Part shown: positions 3,404 through 64,000 of the stretch, in pieces
Layout of the letters: each line of letters begins with the position of its first letter
Position numbering within the stretch: the stretch's first letter is position 1
NCBI RefSeq assembly: GCF_910592395.1
Contig: NC_088318.1
Span: forward strand, 186,001-250,000
Reading direction: 5' to 3'
Length of the DNA stretch: 64,000 nt
Origin: Lineus longissimus
Taxonomy: Eukaryota; Nemertea; Pilidiophora; Heteronemertea; Lineidae
The notes under the pieces: generated by a model
The model's database searches: none
What the model was told of the DNA's origin: nothing
What the model saw: the letters and a program-made list of their open reading frames with translations, nothing else
Program-made: the position numbers and the translations under genes

Positions 3404-6250
3404 ACGTAGGATTGCATTGACTTCTGTATGGATGAAACAATTTGTGATGAGTGAACTCAATGGGAGTGTTAGCTCAGCTAACGTTCCCTAGCTGTACTCA
3501 GTGTTAGGCCGCTGTGGCTTTATTGTTAGCTTGTCTGTATGACATGGGTGAGTGCCTCGTATGACTTCGTATCAATAGACTGTTTGCTTGTGCTGTTTCT
3601 CCTTGTTCCGTGGTCACTTGTGACCTTGTGACACCCCATACAGGAAATGAACCTTTGGTTGGCTTATTGGATGTCCCATTGGTTGTACCTGGGAATATGC
3701 AATGGAGACAAGGACTACTAGTTTACATGGTCACAAGGGAACAACCTATTGACAGACAGCCTGATAGTTCTCGGGGGGGGGGGGGGGGGTTGGGGAAGAG
3801 TTCATGGTCCAGTCGTTGACTTGTTGATAAAGTGGCCCGCTTAAAATGGTAGTGTACAGACTTCTACTGCACGCCTAGTCCCAGTGGCAGATTCATTGAC
3901 AACCATTTACAACTAGGGCCACTATGCATACAAGTCAACCAATGACTTTGCCTTTAAAGCTTGATGGCCAAATGGTCCAGCTTTGATAAGTACCGGTGGA
4001 TTTTTCGATCCCTTTGAATAGAGGGTCCAGTTGTCCAAACAAGGTACATCAATTGCTTGGAGGTGACTTTGAGTCTGATAGGGTTAAGTGAAGGAGACAA
4101 TGTCTAGTTAACATTAACACCAAGTTAGTGACCACCTTGTTTTGACAGCTGCCCCCAGTAGCTTCCTCTCTGGCAAGTAGCTATCCTTGATAGCTGAATA
4201 TTACAGCAATTGGTGAGCGCATCCTTTGTATAGGACTGAAGGGCTGAACAGATGAATAGTCGTGAGGTTCATTTGCAACCAGCGAAAACTGAAGCTGGTC
4301 CTGTGTATATTTCAATGACGTCAGATTCTCTGTCTGGGAAAATCTAAATGAATAATGCTTCTAGTTAGGTTAATAATCATGTATTATCAGTTCATCAAAA
4401 TAGACAGACTGGTTCCAAATCCCACCATTGATTTTGTGGTTAGAACTAGGAACCAGTCTAAATGCACACTGCTATTGTGGCGGCCCATATGGCTCAAAGT
4501 GTTGTCTTCTTTGAGAAACTTTCTTTGCTGGCGCAGGCTTGGAGATTTGTCGTTGATCAATGCTTGCCACCAAGTAGGCTCAGTGACCTGCTCAAGGTCA
4601 CACTATAGCAAGCTGGAGACTTGGGAGGTGTGATATGATGACATCAAGAGCCAATGAAATCAATGCTGGCGGCCCAGTTCCTCATTCGGTGTAAGAGGTG
4701 TGCCTTGTCTGCTTAGCGTTAGGAATACCACAGTTACCTCTTATGCCAATTGATCCACCAGGCCCGGAGTGCCTGAGATGTTTACCATGACGGCTGTTGA
4801 CCCCTTGTCATCATCTTACCACCTCAAGACTATAATTAGCTGACACGACAGCATGCATTGCTTTTTCTTGTGATTTATATGAATAATACTGCTGAATATA
4901 TTATGTTAATCAATCATGTCATCCATCCACGATTCAGCGCTGCCGGTCAGTGTCTGTGACACATAATTAATCGTCATTTAATCAGTATAGCAATTATAAG
5001 TACATATGTAACAACGCACAAGAATTTCACAAATCTTGTATTCCTATCAATTGGTGGTATTTATTGTGAAAACCTCCTGTAAGACAAACAAAGGGCAACT
5101 TGATTGATATCCTTGTCAATCTAGAGCTTATATTATAATGCAATGATTCTTTTTGGATTTACCCTGTATATTGATTACATTTATATAAAACTAATTGTTC
5201 TTAAAGGAGGAGACCTGTAAGAGACAGGCGAGCACTATTGTAAACATCATGGTTTCTGTTTCATGATTGTTAAGGGTTGCAAGTGTATGGGTAACATAGT
5301 TGGTGAAATGATGCACAGTGTTGGATCAGCATCCGAGAACCATCCTCAGGAATGTGCCCTGGTCTGCAGGTTGTGAATAAAGCTCCTCCTCCTTTAAGTT
5401 TGGGAGAACCTGTGGGGGCTTTTTGGAGTCAGCTGGTCTGACCTGTCTCTCGACTGATAGAATTGAAAGTTTAAATTGCGTTTGTGATCAATGAATTGAT
5501 AAAGTTCTGATTTAAAGCGTCAGGTTGAAATTTATCTTGTGTTTTTGCTGAGCATTTGTAATGTATTTAAACTTGCATAAAAATGCTGTGCATTTTGATA
5601 TACTCCTGGTATATGATGGTGCAATGTATATAACAATAGTTAGTTTTCTTATAGACTTAAGACTGAACCAGTAGTTTATTTGAATGTTCCGAATTCTAGG
5701 ACATTGTTGCAAATTAGGCTGTTGACAGAATAGAATTCTTCAGGCCCGTGTCTATGTACATAAGAACGGACTCATTTTCATTTTCGATTGTTGAATTAGG
5801 TTTTTCCCAAACCATTGCTCACCCTGTATAGAATGATAAGAATTAAATGAACTTTGTGGGAGAAGACAAAAGTAGGTAATTGATTGACAACTTGATTAAA
5901 GAAGGTGTGTCTTTGGCTGGAGATGTAATAAGCATGTTTGGAAGGTATCTGTGATAAGTAGTCCACATGCAGGAGGGGGGGGGGGGGGTTACTGTGATGA
6001 TGTCAGAGCAGGAGACCATAGAACTCCATATTCCATGTACATGCACTCACTATTGCCATACAGTCTGTGATATCATCACATGACCTACTCTGAGCCAGTC
6101 AGGCTTTGTGAACTGTCCTGTGTCGTTGGATGGTTTGATAGCTAACTTCATACCAGCCTTTAAGAGCTGCAGCAGACTAGCTAAACAGAAGACCAATCAC
6201 TCTCCATCTGTTCTTGTGTTCCTAAGGTTGGACGCTCAGTTACTACCACT

Positions 6251-7929: not shown

Positions 7930-8700
7930 GAACATGGTCTTATTTGTTGTGTGTCCCGTGTCGCGAGGTTGGAGATGATCAGAACATAGTGGCTGTGGAA
8001 TTGAAGGAAGAGGCCTCGGCAGCTCTACCGAATGGCCAACACGGTGATAGAGGTGAGGCAATCATAATCAGTCGGAATAGAGCTGGCAGATCCAACGTGT
8101 TACCAACATGGTGAGAGATAAGTCTATCATCAAATCAAGCTTAGCGAATCAACCGTGTCGCCAAAACGTGCGATCGAGAGATGACAGCCACAACCGGACC
8201 GAAATGAGCCCGCTCGCTCCACCATGTTTCCGATACAGTGAGAGGTTTGCGATAGACACAACCCGACCGAATCTATCCTGGTAGGTTCGCAGAGTTCTCA
8301 ATACTCAAAGCGACATAAAAGACTGTCACAACCTGCCCAAAACGGTGGGAAAGCCACAACCTGACAGAATCGGGCCGAGGGGCGATCAGGACAACCAGCC
8401 GAGACGGATCCCGATCCTTGGCGATGAGTAGAATCAAGGGAGGACGAGAACTGCCTTGAGGTGACAGGTGTCAAACATGATATATGTCTTCTATCTGTGT
8501 CTCGTCCAAGAGACAGACGGTAGAGACCGTCTGAAGGCTGTGACTGTCCCCTACGAGTGCATCTTGACCCTCAAGCCTTGGATCCACTCCGCCGACCCGG
8601 ACTCCGTTAAGGGAGGTAGTAGGGGAGGTAACGGACCGAATTACTCTGATGGTTTAGAATGGTGCGAGTGCAGACTATTACAACCTATAGAGACAAGTGA
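7930..8700. promoter_or_regulatory. CpG-richer stretch, possible tetraspanin promoter/5' UTR
   Basis: CpG is denser than in the flanking sequence (many cgcg, ccga, gacgg words) and no supported exon lies within it. It lies 0.4-1.1 kb upstream of the tetraspanin start codon. This is inference from composition only. Confidence 0.25.
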
Positions 8701-9084
8701 GTTACCAGTGACATCACCGAAATCAGCTCATTAGTTTCTACGTTATATGTCACCTAGTCATTATCAGCAATGCAGCCTGTCATTTGACCCAAATAGTGAA
8801 TCATACAAGGAAGTGAGGCCGGCTTCCCCATTTATCACTTAGTGAGAGGATACTTTGACTCAGTATAGACACAATAACAGACACTTTAGGGTGCGTTGTG
8901 GCAGTGCCGGTCTTTTGCAGACATAACTACCGTTTTGTCTAGTTGGCTTCCTTGATCTAAGGGGCTGGTTACTCTAAGCCTGGATCGTGTTGTGTTTGGA
9001 GACATACTGAGATAAAGAAGTTGTCGACAGCCCCCGCCTGGCAGGGACAACCTTCAAGACAGAAGACGGGCACATCTCAAGAGG

Positions 9085-12000
9085 ATGGATGAGCCATTGA
9101 GAAAGAGGGATGTTTTTTGCAAGTGTTTAACAAGTTTTGTCATCAAATGTTTTCTGATCTGCACGACTGCCATATGTGTTGTAAGTAATCATATTGGATA
9201 ATGTGTGAGCTGTTGCCATGTCTATTCATAGGCTTTGTCCAGCAAACTCGGATCATAGTACAATCTTGTTGTTTGATCGCTGGCCTTTTGACAGGAATTA
9301 CCAGGACCACAGCTGTCTGCTGTCCTCGGGCAATCAATGTGTGTCTCTGAGGAGTAGGGGAGACTGTCTAACCAATACCAGAGACTTCGAGAACCGTGTG
9401 GTCTCAAAGGCTTGGTCTTGATAGAGTACTACATGTAGATTCAAAGTAAAAGTTAGAGCGGACAGTATGGTCGCGAGAGTTCGGAGGCTAGAATGTGCCA
9501 TCTTGTCTTGGTGTTCTGTCTCTAGTCTTAAAGTTTGCAGGTCTGGCAGAGGTCGTTGAAGTAGGAGTGTTCGCTCATTTCAAAAGTTGCAACCCCACTA
9601 AGTAACATCGTGTCCCCATGGTCCCATATTTGGTGGCACTGGTCTGTCTCTAGTCTTACAGTCTGTATGCAAGGTGGTGACACTAGGAGCATTAGACCAT
9701 TTTTTCATTAAAGGTACAACCCCAGCAAGTCACATCTTGTCCCGGCGTACAACCGACCCTAATCTTTCAGTCAAGCTGCCTCTAGTATTACAGTCTTAAT
9801 AGGTTTGCCAGAGGTTGTGAATAGGCCATTTTTATCAGAGGTACAGCCTGCACTGGTCACATACTGTCCCCTTGGTCCTTAAGGCCATCGACTTCCTAAA
9901 GTCTAACAGTTTTCAGGCATGACAGAGATTGCGGAGTGTCAAGCTACTCACCTAGAATGTCACATCCTGTCTGATTGCATGTTTTCAGGTTGGCGGCTTG
10001 GTGATCATTATTGGTTCCATATGGCTGATGACAGACTCATCAGCAGCGGAGGATGTCGAGGACCAGGAGGGCATCCAGGGGATCCGGAATGGTGCCGCTG
10101 TCTTCTTATGTGGAGGGATTGCTGTTTTCCTTATCAATGGTACAGGATGTCTCGGTGCAATCTTAAAGAACCCTAAACTACCACTTGCAGTAAGTACAGG
10201 GGTATTGGAGATTGTATTGGTGTGAGTTAGATTCCTGTGTGAAACTTTTTCTGAGAATAGATCATTTTTTAAGATAACAACCTGGCCCCCAAGGGTTCAA
10301 GACAAGTCTGTCACACACTTCACATTAATGAGTAACTGCTGCCTACTACAATTTCCTTTAAGAATTATTTGTAATTTGAACACAGCAGTTGTCTTTGTGA
10401 ATCGTGAATGATGGGGAAACTCACTAATAACTTGCGTTAGGCTTTGACACATCATAACGCCAAGATAAGCTGACAACAAGCTTGTGGTTTCTAACTTCAA
10501 ACACATCTTGAAGAACTGCTTCTTCGATCGCTGATATGAATAAACCGACAACACTGATAACAGAGCACAACATAAGACTTGTACATTTTCCTTGCAGTTC
10601 ATCATCCTGGTTGGCTTCATACTCGTCATCCCGGAGATCATCCTGATCATCTGGTTCATTGTGAACCAAGGCCAGGTGGTGGCGCTCACAGATGAGGTGG
10701 TCTCGAGGAACATCCAGGGATTCATCATTTACAACCGGACGGACTCCAGGATATTCATGACCAACATACAAAAAACGGTAGAGTACCAAGCCTCGAATTT
10801 GAAGGACTTTTTGTTGGTGAGCCCGAGGCACATAAAACAAACTTGAAACACTTTATGCAGCATATCTAAGCATAGTCTGGTCTTATCTAAGCCCCCCTCT
10901 TCTATTGCAGCTGAAGTGCTGTGGCTTTCAAGGCATAAGTGATTATATGACCGACCCACAGCGGGACACCTGCAAGAAACCCCGTCCACAGGTAAAACAT
11001 TCACACCGTCTTTTATTTTTGATTCAAGAATCTCTTTTCAGCAAAAGGCATAATACTGGGAAGCTTGAAAAGGCTAACTTGCTCTGCTCAACAGCCTGAA
11101 CTTCTAAACACTGAATGACTGATACAACAGGCTCAAGCTTGACCTCAGCAGTATCAATGACTGATACAACAGGCTCAAGCTTGACCTCAGCAGTATCAAT
11201 GACTGATACAACAGGCTCAAGCTTCACCTCAGCAGTATCAATGACTGATACAACAGGCTCCAGCTTGACCTCAGCAGTATCAATGACTGATACAACAGGC
11301 TCCAGCTTCACCTCAGCAGTACCAATGACTGATACAACAGGCTCAAGCTTGACCTCAGCAGTATCAATGACTGATACAACAGGCTCAAGCTTGACCTCAG
11401 CAGTATCAATGACTGATACAACAGGCTCAAGCTTGACCTCAGCAGTATCAATGACTGATACAACAGGCTCAAGCTTGACCTCAGCAGTATCAATGACTGA
11501 TACAACAGGCTCAAGCTTCACCTCAGCAGTATCAATGACTGATACAACAGGCTCAAGCTTCACCTCAGCAGTATCAATGACTGATACAACAGGCTCAAGC
11601 TTCACCTCAGCAGTATCAATGACTGATACAACAGGCTCAAGCTTCACCTCAGCAGTATCAATGCCACCTAATAACAAATACACACAAAACGTATTTTCAC
11701 CTTAGTTTGCAGCAAGCCCATGCTATAATGATCAGATATTAACCTAGACTTTTGAATGCCCTGTGCCCAGATGATTTTAGTCTACCATATGACTCGGTGG
11801 TGGATGGATCCTTTTATCTCCCCATCCCTCCATCTTGCAGACAGGGTATTACATCACAGGATGCAAGCACAGCCTCGCCAAAATGTTCCGGGAGAATCTC
11901 GCAATCATTGGCTCAATCGAAATCTTACATCTCATAATAAGCGTAAGTTTGAAACACTTTCAATATCAATCGATTCACTTCCCTCGAACCAAAGACCTTT

Positions 12001-60521: not shown

Positions 60522-60527
60522 TTTATT
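60522..60527 (-). terminator. poly(A) signal, NOV-MLLE gene
   Basis: AATAAA on the minus strand (TTTATT on plus) about 185 nt past the stop of the DUF3883-MLLE gene. Confidence 0.45.
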
Positions 60528-60710: not shown

Positions 60711-63700
60711 TCACTGATACTTGGCTTGGTACGCCTTCAACATGCTCACAGCTTCCTCCACTTTAACCCTGAGCGATCCCCGGTCCTCTAACATCTGCAG
60801 CAACATGGCATTATCCAACTCGAGCAACATGCCCGTGATCTTTGTGGCTAGTTCTGGCTGCATACCAGAAATAAGTGGGAATAGATGTTCCCCCAGAACC
60901 TGTTTCAGTTCCTGTGGAGGTATCGCGGCAAGCATAGCTCTACCAGGCAGTCTCTGACCTTGACCTTGGCTTCCCATTGACGACTCTAACTTCTGGAAGG
61001 ATAACGTTTCTAATTTGTTGCTATGACCTCCAGTCGACAGATTCTCGTTCCCAGAGAAAGCAGCGTCTCCATTCACAGCCCCAACCTGGTACCCATGACC
61101 CAGGGCAATCTGAGCTGGGCAGATCATACACAAGTGAATAACCTTGCGGTCGAGTTTCTCCTTGATGTTATTGATGCTGACCAACTTGGGCTTCTTCTTC
61201 TCACCGATATTGAAAACGCGGTACAGATAGTATCGCTCCTGTTTCTCTGAAGCGAAGTCAAGTTCTCGTAAAGACATCCCCATCGTGACCTTGTGCTCTG
61301 TTTTTGTAGCCTTGACCTCAATAAAAACTTCATTCAAATTTCCACAATCATCTTTCAACTTCAACAGAATGTCAAACGGATCACCAGTTTCATGATGCCG
61401 GTTTATCCACACAACTTCTACGATGATCAAACCGTTGAAAGTTTCTCGTTTTTTCAAGAAATTGTAGACAAGCTGTTCACCGATTCGGCCGACTTCCTCT
61501 GCATCCTCACTCGCTTCGATCCTGATCTCATGAGGCAGGTTTGACATTGAAAGGTCGCCAAGGTCATCAAAGATGATTTCTTCCTCAATCCCTTCACCCA
61601 CTGAAAACAGAAATCATCCATTGGACAACTCAATAAGATGCACCTCAAATCAAACTTACTGCAATCCAATGACTTTCCTTTCGTCACTATTTCTCGTTAG
61701 ATCAGGCAAATGAACAGCCCTTAGAAATGCAATTAATGGTGCACTTTTGAAAAGACTGTTCATTAAATCACCAACCCACACTGGCAGATACCAATCTCGT
61801 TTCTCCCGGCATTCAACTAGACACAGAAACCACGACAGTTTACTCCCACAACATCTATTTCAAGTACTTACTCTTCACGAAGCCTCGCGACGGTGTCCCC
61901 TCATGACTACTTCTGACATCACGCGGAGGTGTCGCAAAGGCACCAGTGCTTGTCGTCCTTGCTCGCCTCGTCTCCATTTCTTGGCCAGCCTCCTCAGCCT
62001 CCGTCTGCTTGGGAGATTGGCTTCCAGCAGACGTCTCCTCAACGTTTGTTGATTCACTTTCTTTCAGGTTTTCTTCAGCTGTTTCGGACGATGTGGTATC
62101 CTGTGTCTGGTTGATCGCCTCAGTGATGTAGTCACCGAGGTTACGACCAGAATGCTCTGGTTTCCCATGACCTGTAAGACGAAATGATCGCCACATTGTA
62201 AGACAACAACGGACAAATCTTCACACATGATTCAGGCATGAATCATGGCTATTGTATATCGGGTTAGGAAGTTCTGTGAATGATGCCATCATAAACTTTT
62301 CAGGGGACCTTCCCACTACTTACTTGTCACAGCAACAAGGTTGTAACAAGTCTCTACAGAATGTCTCACTTACCCAGCACGCTGTCTGAAGACGGACGTC
62401 CATCTCCCTCTCCCCTCCTTGGACCTACCCCACCGCCCAGTCCATGTCCACCACCCAGGTCGTGTTCACCAACCTGGTCTCCAGGTGGATGATCATCGCG
62501 TGGTCGCCTCATATCACCACCTCCAACACCAGGCTGTGGAAGAAACCAACACTCATCAGACGGGGAGAAGAACCAATGTGGAGAGACAACCTGCCACATT
62601 TAGAGTGACACGTCGAGCCCAGAACACTCATAGAACGTCAAGAGTGCTTCCCTTAACTCTCTATGTTCAGGCACGTTACACTCCATTGAGGACATCAGTG
62701 CCTGGCTCAACAAGTCAGAAGTTGTAACTATATTTTCAGAGGTTGTATCAGCTAATGCATGCCAGGCACTGCTCCGAAGAGAATTGGAACACACTGAACA
62801 TACCCAGACTCTGTCATTTCAATTGTGAAGTCGAATGGCGGTGACGAAAATTCCAGGATTATAATCCAGATCTCTATACTCACAGTTCCTCCAGACTGGA
62901 CACTCTGGCTCCGGGTGAACACTGCCCCCTCTTGGCAGTCGCCGGAACCAGGTTCACGACCACCTGGCTCTCTTGGTCCATCAGCGGTTGGAGGCCGAGC
63001 AAAGGGCGGGATCTCATCAGAATGTTTCGGAGGAGGCCACATGCTCATTAAGCCGCCACCAGTCTGTGAATCACCTGAAATATTCCAATAATCAATAAAC
63101 AACTTGATACACATGCGTGTAGATACTCTTAACCAAACCTGGTTTCTCTCAGTTTCAGGGATTGCATGTAAAGGGGGATCCTTATATTCACAGGGCAGTC
63201 TTGTTCATTGACCTGTTGGGCAAGAAAAGGTATCGATACACGAACTTGATAATCAACTTCAAACAATGTCCTGCACAGGACCGAGTTGCCAAATGTTGCT
63301 GTAAGGAAAGCCAGCAAGACAGCCTCGCCATCAAGTGCTACCTGTTTTCCTGCCAGAGGGAGCTGGTGGTGGCCACTGAGACAGAAACGGTCCATCTATC
63401 TTCATCTTATTCTCCTTCCCCTCCTCGACCGCAGGCGTCACCTCAGGTTCCTGCGGCTTTACCTTGGGTACCGGAGGTAACCTCCTCTTGGGCTCCTCCA
63501 CCTCCCATCGTTCCTCCATGTCAGGCAGTGCCTCCCAGTCCTTCATCTGGCAGATCATCTCTGACGTGGGAACGCCACGCTCCTTGATCATCTGGTTAAT
63601 ATCAGTCAGGAACGTCCTGAAACAAGAGGCACATCTCTTTCATGCTGCACAACTTCTCAAAGCTCTTTACATTCATTTCCAAGCCTGACTTAGAAACATT

Positions 63701-64000
63701 TCTAAAGAAACCAAGAAGCACACATTCTACTCGACTCTTGGTCATTTCATTCTGCTAAAACACCTTGCCATGTCTACAGTCACCTATCATACGTAATATC
63801 AAACTGATGAAGCAATTCGTTCTGCCAGGTTTACCTGATGCCATTCCTAATCATCTGGTCCTCGTCACTGAACACGCGGGCAATCTCCTTCTGAATCTCC
63901 AGGACGGCAGGGATGTGATCTTTATGGATGTAGAACGTGCTCCACTCATCCATCGCACATGCCTCACTCTGGATGTGGACAGCCGTGTTGCTGTGTTTCA
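60711..64000 (-). CDS. NOV/DUF3883 domain protein with C-terminal PABC/MLLE domain (partial)
   Basis: Exons (high to low): 64000-63835, 63616-63342, 63074-62884, 62533-62374, 62171-61872, 61600-60711; phases close throughout. The 5' end is outside the window. The first exons are helical ([20 protein letters not shown]), then come long Pro/Gly- and Glu/Ser/Thr-rich linkers. The last exon holds a DUF3883 domain as in plant [58 protein letters not shown]. It keeps a PD-(D/E)xK-like core (E42, D77, E95, K97 counting from the exon start). After about 60 residues of linker the same frame continues into a PABC/MLLE domain (60938-60714): [46 protein letters not shown]. That domain normally binds PAM2 peptides at the end of poly(A)-binding proteins or in UBR5. 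NO VEIN proteins usually start with a GHKL ATPase domain, which would be off-window. Confidence 0.9.

What the first reader, a model, noticed from the sequence alone, without database searches (positions are those of the whole stretch)
60711..61600. DUF3883/NO VEIN nuclease-like domain fused in one exon to a poly(A)-binding-protein MLLE domain
Seen: one uninterrupted minus-strand frame encodes a DUF3883 domain with a PD-(D/E)xK-like core (PFDIL...FIEVKAT). About 60 residues later it encodes a full MLLE/PABC domain with GEHLFPLI and KITGMLLE. Known: MLLE domains bind PAM2 peptides and are otherwise familiar from cytoplasmic poly(A)-binding proteins and UBR5; DUF3883 is known from plant NO VEIN and related large ATPases. 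Inference: a predicted nuclease-like protein that could dock onto PAM2-bearing RNA-regulation factors, which would tie it to mRNA tails or RNA surveillance. I do not know of a described protein with this pairing.
Basis: partly seen in the sequence, partly recalled or inferred. Interest (0 to 1): 0.9.

Follow-up and report, generated by a model that had tools for sequence, protein, structure and literature searches.

The report
Nuclease-like protein fused to poly(A)-binding-protein dock
In a genome that looks like a ribbon worm's, a giant protein related to a bacterial anti-phage protein carries at its very end the small docking module that poly(A)-binding proteins use to recruit messenger-RNA factors, a pairing for which no description was found.

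Summary
Confirmed. Exon 61600..60711 (minus) encodes NOV_C/DUF3883 (PF13020, 71.8 bits) and a complete MLLE domain (PF00658, 86.7 bits) in one frame and splices in frame with five upstream exons. It is the 3' end of a NO VEIN gene ("gene A") that runs on outside the window, with a sacsin-type ATPase exon and exons in the order of a paralog. Paralogs B and C stop right after NOV_C and show no MLLE in the 30 kb fetched around each. An independent JGI contig carries the fusion with two MLLE domains (P0002, 67% identical). The MLLE is PABPC-type and lacks the intron that interrupts the worm's own PABPC MLLE, which suggests, but does not prove, capture of a spliced transcript. The NOV_C model matches mostly PD-(D/E)xK-type nucleases, with E, D, E, K present. 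The MLLE model overlays human PABPC1 MLLE; 14 of 18 PAM2-contact residues are identical. Gene A is also partly colinear with bacterial TmtA (Tiamat). Best reading: an ATPase-gated, nuclease-fold protein with an acquired PAM2 dock. Catalysis, binding, RNA target and transcripts are untested.

The parts
60711..61600 (-). Terminal exon of gene A (NO VEIN family): NOV_C + linker + MLLE + stop codon
   Evidence: acceptor ttttcag before 61600, stop 60713-60711; Pfam
61185..61481 (-). NOV_C (DUF3883, PF13020) domain, PD-(D/E)xK-type fold; candidate active-site residues E46, D81, E99, K101 of P0001
   Evidence: 71.8 bits; fold matches; residue counts E 25, D 23, E 23, K 25 of 25 rows in alignment A5
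60939..61067 (-). Variable linker between NOV_C block and MLLE
   Evidence: 9 of 40 aligned residues identical to P0002
60738..60935 (-). Complete MLLE (PABC) domain of PABPC type
   Evidence: 86.7 bits, profile 1-66/66; 89.7 bits in the genome scan; NCBIfam PABP-1234 positions 520-595/595; model vs 3pkn_A rmsd 0.9, TMt 0.93
61872..62171 (-). Penultimate exon, acidic/polar linker
   Evidence: AG and GT at its ends, in frame; codon score 0.06 in its frame
62374..62533 (-). Exon, Gly/Asp-rich linker
   Evidence: AG and GT at its ends, in frame
62884..63074 (-). Exon with a WPPP motif
   Evidence: AG and GT at its ends, in frame; a WPPP-rich segment also lies upstream of NOV_C in paralog B (L002)
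63342..63616 (-). Exon
   Evidence: AG and GT at its ends, in frame
63835..64000 (-). Exon cut by the window edge; its open frame runs on to L006:4028
   Evidence: matches paralog B
60522..60527 (-). AATAAA, candidate polyadenylation signal downstream of the MLLE stop

Best explanation
Gene A encodes a NO VEIN-type protein related to TmtA: a GHKL (sacsin/HSP90-like) ATPase, a long body, and a C-terminal restriction-endonuclease-fold domain (NOV_C) with an intact candidate active site. In this lineage the last exon was extended past the usual stop by a PABPC-derived piece that includes the MLLE domain. The ATPase is inferred to sense or clamp a target and to gate the nuclease. The MLLE is inferred to bind PAM2 peptides, so that the enzyme is tethered to mRNP factors (eRF3, PAIP, PAN3, ataxin-2, GW182, LARP4 and the like) and acts near translated or polyadenylated RNA, for example in RNA surveillance or antiviral defence. 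Shown by computation: the fusion, its open frame, its occurrence in a second sequence, the two folds, conserved active-site and pocket residues, and partial colinearity with TmtA. Inferred: retro-origin, ATP gating, cleavage, PAM2 binding, RNA target.
Against: No transcript, protein or binding data. Position 579 is Thr instead of Gly, and 588, 613 and 617 also differ. No PAM2 motif was found in A, B or C that would show a built-in partner. A fold match shows a fold, not activity. Over the same 68 columns gene A's MLLE is closer to human PABPC1 (44 identical) than to the worm's own PABPC (38), so the donor cannot be named as this gene; intron loss after a DNA-level fusion would also give an intronless MLLE. 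The MLLE tree is unresolved (bootstrap 9 to 71), so one or two acquisitions cannot be told apart. My crude gene finder placed a 105-nt intron inside the last exon; I reject it because it would delete half of a conserved domain, but only transcripts can settle it. The linker has no coding-like codon signal.
Confidence: 0.53

Rival explanations
1. Decoy or scaffold: the MLLE competes with PABPC for PAM2 proteins, or only localises the protein, and NOV_C is a non-cutting nucleic-acid-binding domain.
For: MLLE pocket mostly intact. NOV is known as a developmental factor in plants (passage in PMC12289216), and PMC12690905 (passage) says no homolog has been characterised in metazoans.
Against: All four candidate active-site residues are kept in gene A and in P0002; the corresponding motifs are visible by eye in B and C.
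Confidence: 0.2
2. Self-regulation: as proposed for UBR5, the MLLE binds a PAM2-like segment inside the same protein or a paralog and keeps the ATPase or nuclease shut.
For: UBR5 precedent (PMC9249222 passage).
Against: No strict PAM2 in the ORFs scanned of A, B or C (12 loose matches in those ORFs, none with the full consensus) and no acidic PAM2-like motif in the draft gene A.
Confidence: 0.1
3. A passenger tail: the MLLE is an acquired tail without a role.
For: Paralogs lack it; copy number differs, one in gene A and two in P0002.
Against: The MLLE stays intact in two diverged sequences while the linker has fallen to 22.5% identity; MLLE codon use is exon-like.
Confidence: 0.1
4. Assembly or gene-model artefact that joins two genes.
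For: None beyond the lack of transcripts.
Against: One exon, one frame, no N in the stretch; same order in an independent contig.
Confidence: 0.02

Closest known systems
NO VEIN family (plant NOV; animal NO VEIN-like proteins)
   Same: Sacsin-type ATPase followed by NOV_C in one gene; two such paralogs in the same genome
   Different: Gene A continues 135 residues past the point where paralog B stops, with a PABPC-type MLLE
TmtA (PADLOC models; taken from recall to be the Tiamat anti-phage protein)
   Same: ATPase, middle and NOV_C segments match one TmtA profile in the same order
   Different: Gene A has a long N-terminal part conserved with paralog B upstream of the ATPase and a C-terminal MLLE; defence activity untested
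PABPC, UBR5/HYD, fungal Rrm4 (described MLLE proteins)
   Same: Complete MLLE; the PABPC type is closest
   Different: A nuclease-fold domain in these is not known to me. PMC9249222 (2022; passage) names, besides PABPC1, only UBR5 and Rrm4-type proteins as described MLLE proteins
Sacsin
   Same: Related ATPase domain (SACS; P_loop_sacsin 71.8 bits for paralog B)
   Different: No other sacsin domain matched at E 0.01 in the minus-strand frames of L006-L008 that I scanned; gene A has NOV_C and MLLE

Membership tests
NO VEIN family (NOV_C, PF13020) | NOV_C domain over the curated cut-off | tested here: met
   71.8 bits vs cut-off 22.1
NO VEIN family (NOV_C, PF13020) | GHKL/sacsin-type ATPase upstream in the same gene | tested here: met
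   SACS 40.1 bits vs cut-off 32.8 in an L007 minus frame; same gene inferred from 23 ORFs in the same order as paralog B; no transcript
PD-(D/E)xK (restriction-endonuclease-like) fold | alpha-beta-beta-beta-alpha-beta core | tested here: met
PD-(D/E)xK (restriction-endonuclease-like) fold | acidic and lysine active-site residues | tested here: met
   E46, D81, E99, K101 present; 25, 23, 23 and 25 of 25 aligned rows
PD-(D/E)xK (restriction-endonuclease-like) fold | nucleic-acid cleavage | not testable with these tools
   needs an assay
MLLE domain, PABPC type | full-length PF00658 match with the KITGMLLE signature | tested here: met
   86.7 bits, 1-66/66; KITGMLLE present
MLLE domain, PABPC type | PAM2-contact residues | tested here: inconclusive
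   14 of 18 identical to human PABPC1; G579T, I588L, V613M, H617Y
Poly(A)-binding protein (PABPC) | PABP-1234 model over its cut-off (whole protein with RRMs) | tested here: not met
   81 bits vs cut-off 497.1, only positions 520-595; only the last exon was given to that model
TmtA (Tiamat) | profile matches along the length in order | tested here: met
   7 gene A pieces hit PDLC03972 at 4-159, 168-208, 286-345, 473-526, 648-688, 736-885, 1176-1292; three are weak (E 0.014, 0.0015, 0.0061); 8 of 13 pieces hit any TmtA model, 5 none
TmtA (Tiamat) | defence activity | not testable with these tools
   needs an experiment

The most novel reading that the evidence does not exclude
An animal relative of a bacterial anti-phage ATPase-nuclease (Tiamat-like NO VEIN) captured a spliced PABPC mRNA fragment and thereby became an RNA-directed immune or surveillance effector that is guided to, or competes at, poly(A)-mRNP complexes through PAM2 peptides.
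Probability: 0.25. Interest if true: 0.85.

Novelty: new variant of a known kind. Interest (0 to 1): 0.63.

Why it matters
As of 2022, MLLE domains had been described in only two kinds of protein besides PABPC (PMC9249222, passage), and a 2025 paper says no NO VEIN homolog has been characterised in metazoans (PMC12690905, passage). A natural fusion ties this uncharacterised family to mRNP biology and gives concrete tests: does the tail bind PAM2, and does NOV_C cut RNA or DNA? The match to a bacterial anti-phage protein makes an immune role of animal NO VEIN proteins directly testable.

Tried and rejected
Artefact: rejected because of P0002. UBR5 origin of the MLLE: rejected, since PABPC matches are far stronger (best E 7.3e-24 vs 8.2e-13 for the best UBR5 chain) and PABPC linker residues are kept, although [11 protein letters not shown] is shared with P0011. 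Recent retrocopy: no support; identity to own PABPC is 55.9% (38 of 68), to human PABPC1 64.7% (44 of 68), and no second MLLE lies downstream. A weak match of a PABPC MLLE query to another gene A-strand stretch (novA 25692-25513 = L008 minus, E 0.004) was checked: Pfam gives no MLLE there. A Pfam DUF717 hit at 27.8 bits in a read-through frame looks like low complexity. PAM2 motif inside gene A or paralogs: none. MLLE tree: unresolved. Relatives in viral contigs and a first scan of prokaryote contigs: none. A second scan gave 25 NOV_C loci, of which I aligned 21 (left out L031, L042, L043, L044). Padded-frame searches for mid-length and long proteins: nothing at E 1e-6 and 1, so they say nothing firm about taxonomic spread; beyond P0002 the spread is unknown. 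PDB by sequence with the NOV_C alignment: only a chance hit. Two paralog B pieces and five gene A pieces gave no TmtA hit. Literature: 10 searches. One search, the direct one, gave one irrelevant ant paper; one search showed 20 of 90 papers, none with 'no vein'; others (40 of 321 shown; 15 of 666 shown) were swamped by unrelated words; others (4 papers; 18) listed none that holds both Tiamat and NO VEIN or DUF3883. So no paper joining NO VEIN/DUF3883 with MLLE or Tiamat was seen in that open-access library, which misses most subscription journals. Papers were seen as passages (PMC3710099, PMC8593623, PMC2854688, PMC9249222, PMC12690905, PMC12289216, PMC12629846, PMC4574140); no paper was read whole.

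Full report
What is there. The minus-strand exon 61600..60711 carries NOV_C (71.8 bits) and a complete MLLE (86.7 bits) in one open frame. Five upstream exons with AG/GT borders join it in one frame of 659 residues plus stop. The window edge cuts the gene.

The rest of the gene. The host assembly is held (391,118,348 bases, 30 contigs; window = C11:186001-250000). Stretches upstream of the window contain a sacsin-type ATPase exon (PF25794, 40.1 bits). Two further NOV_C loci, at C11:14.27 Mb and 15.68 Mb, are paralogs B and C (NOV_C 55.7 and 66.8 bits). Open frames of A and B match in 23 A ORFs in the same order (28 hit rows; two rows from overlapping wrong frames left out). Gene A thus spans about 18 kb or more. 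A draft full protein is crude and is used only for motif scans.

The MLLE was added, or lost twice. B ends with TAA and C with TGA directly after NOV_C, and MLLE queries find nothing better than E 0.15 and 0.32 in the 30 kb fetched around each; an intron-split MLLE could be missed. The genome scan finds MLLE at four loci: PABPC, gene A, a multi-MLLE gene on C17, and a gene on C20:13.46 Mb that I read by eye as UBR5-like from its ORFs (6 matches, 5 over the cut-off; counts are lower bounds). Gene A's MLLE matches the PABP model from position 520 to its last position 595, so it also carries PABPC linker residues. In the worm's PABPC the MLLE is split by an intron (exon end L015 5234, next exon at 4478, minus); gene A covers both sides in one exon. 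The simplest reading is capture of spliced PABPC RNA. Later intron loss is not excluded, and the MLLE is closer to human PABPC1 (44 of 68) than to the worm's own (38 of 68), so the event is old and the donor gene is not identified.

Independent support. P0002 (JGI, 382 aa) has NOV_C and two MLLE domains (150.8 bits over two stretches). Identity to gene A is 83.7% in the NOV_C block, 22.5% in the linker, 53.4% to MLLE 1 and 46.5% to MLLE 2. Better conservation of MLLE than of the linker argues for use. The organism of P0002 is unknown.

The bacterial link. PADLOC TmtA models match gene A and gene B: 272.6 bits for the B ATPase ORF, 154.6 bits for the A ATPase exon, 31.5 bits in the middle, 73.1 bits for NOV_C. 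With, 8 of 13 gene A pieces hit some TmtA model, and the seven hits to PDLC03972 lie in order from 4 to 1292 of 1302; three are weak (E 0.014, 0.0015, 0.0061). Five gene A pieces and two gene B pieces had no hit. I read animal NO VEIN proteins as eukaryotic relatives of TmtA. Function in animals does not follow from this. That TmtA is the Tiamat protein is recalled.

Mechanism and limits. Best reading: ATPase-gated nuclease-fold protein tethered by MLLE to PAM2 proteins. Rough confidences: fusion real 0.97, REase fold 0.9, catalytic 0.55, PAM2 binding 0.7, RNA-linked role 0.4, immune role 0.3. No wet data exist here.

Noticed in passing
L006 (C11:246001-256000) 8105-8931, gene A: A 75-bp unit repeated 11 times (96%) whose copies stay in frame. 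By eye each unit holds a splice-acceptor-like tract plus the first 25 codons of a NO VEIN exon: eleven tandem acceptors or an in-frame repeat.
   Followed up: partly
L006 6626-7273: A 60-bp tandem repeat, 10.8 copies, 98%, between exons of gene A.
   Followed up: no
L005/L017, C17:10.325 Mb (minus): A separate gene with two MLLE domains over the cut-off and a third, weaker piece (129.5 bits; 23.2 bits for the piece). A fish protein, Polymixia lowei P0007, has three (155.4 bits). Possibly an undescribed animal multi-MLLE family.
   Followed up: partly
C11:14.25-14.27 Mb and 15.66-15.68 Mb: Two NO VEIN paralogs on the same contig as gene A, with no MLLE found nearby.
   Followed up: yes
L008, minus 1-2367 and plus 8290-9742: By eye, a repeated module of about 75 residues at the N-terminal side of gene A and in the neighbouring plus-strand gene; no Pfam match over a cut-off in the pieces scanned there.
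   Followed up: no
P0008 (ENA, 220 aa): A short protein with a Lys/Glu-rich N-terminus and one MLLE (96 bits) and no other Pfam match.
   Followed up: no
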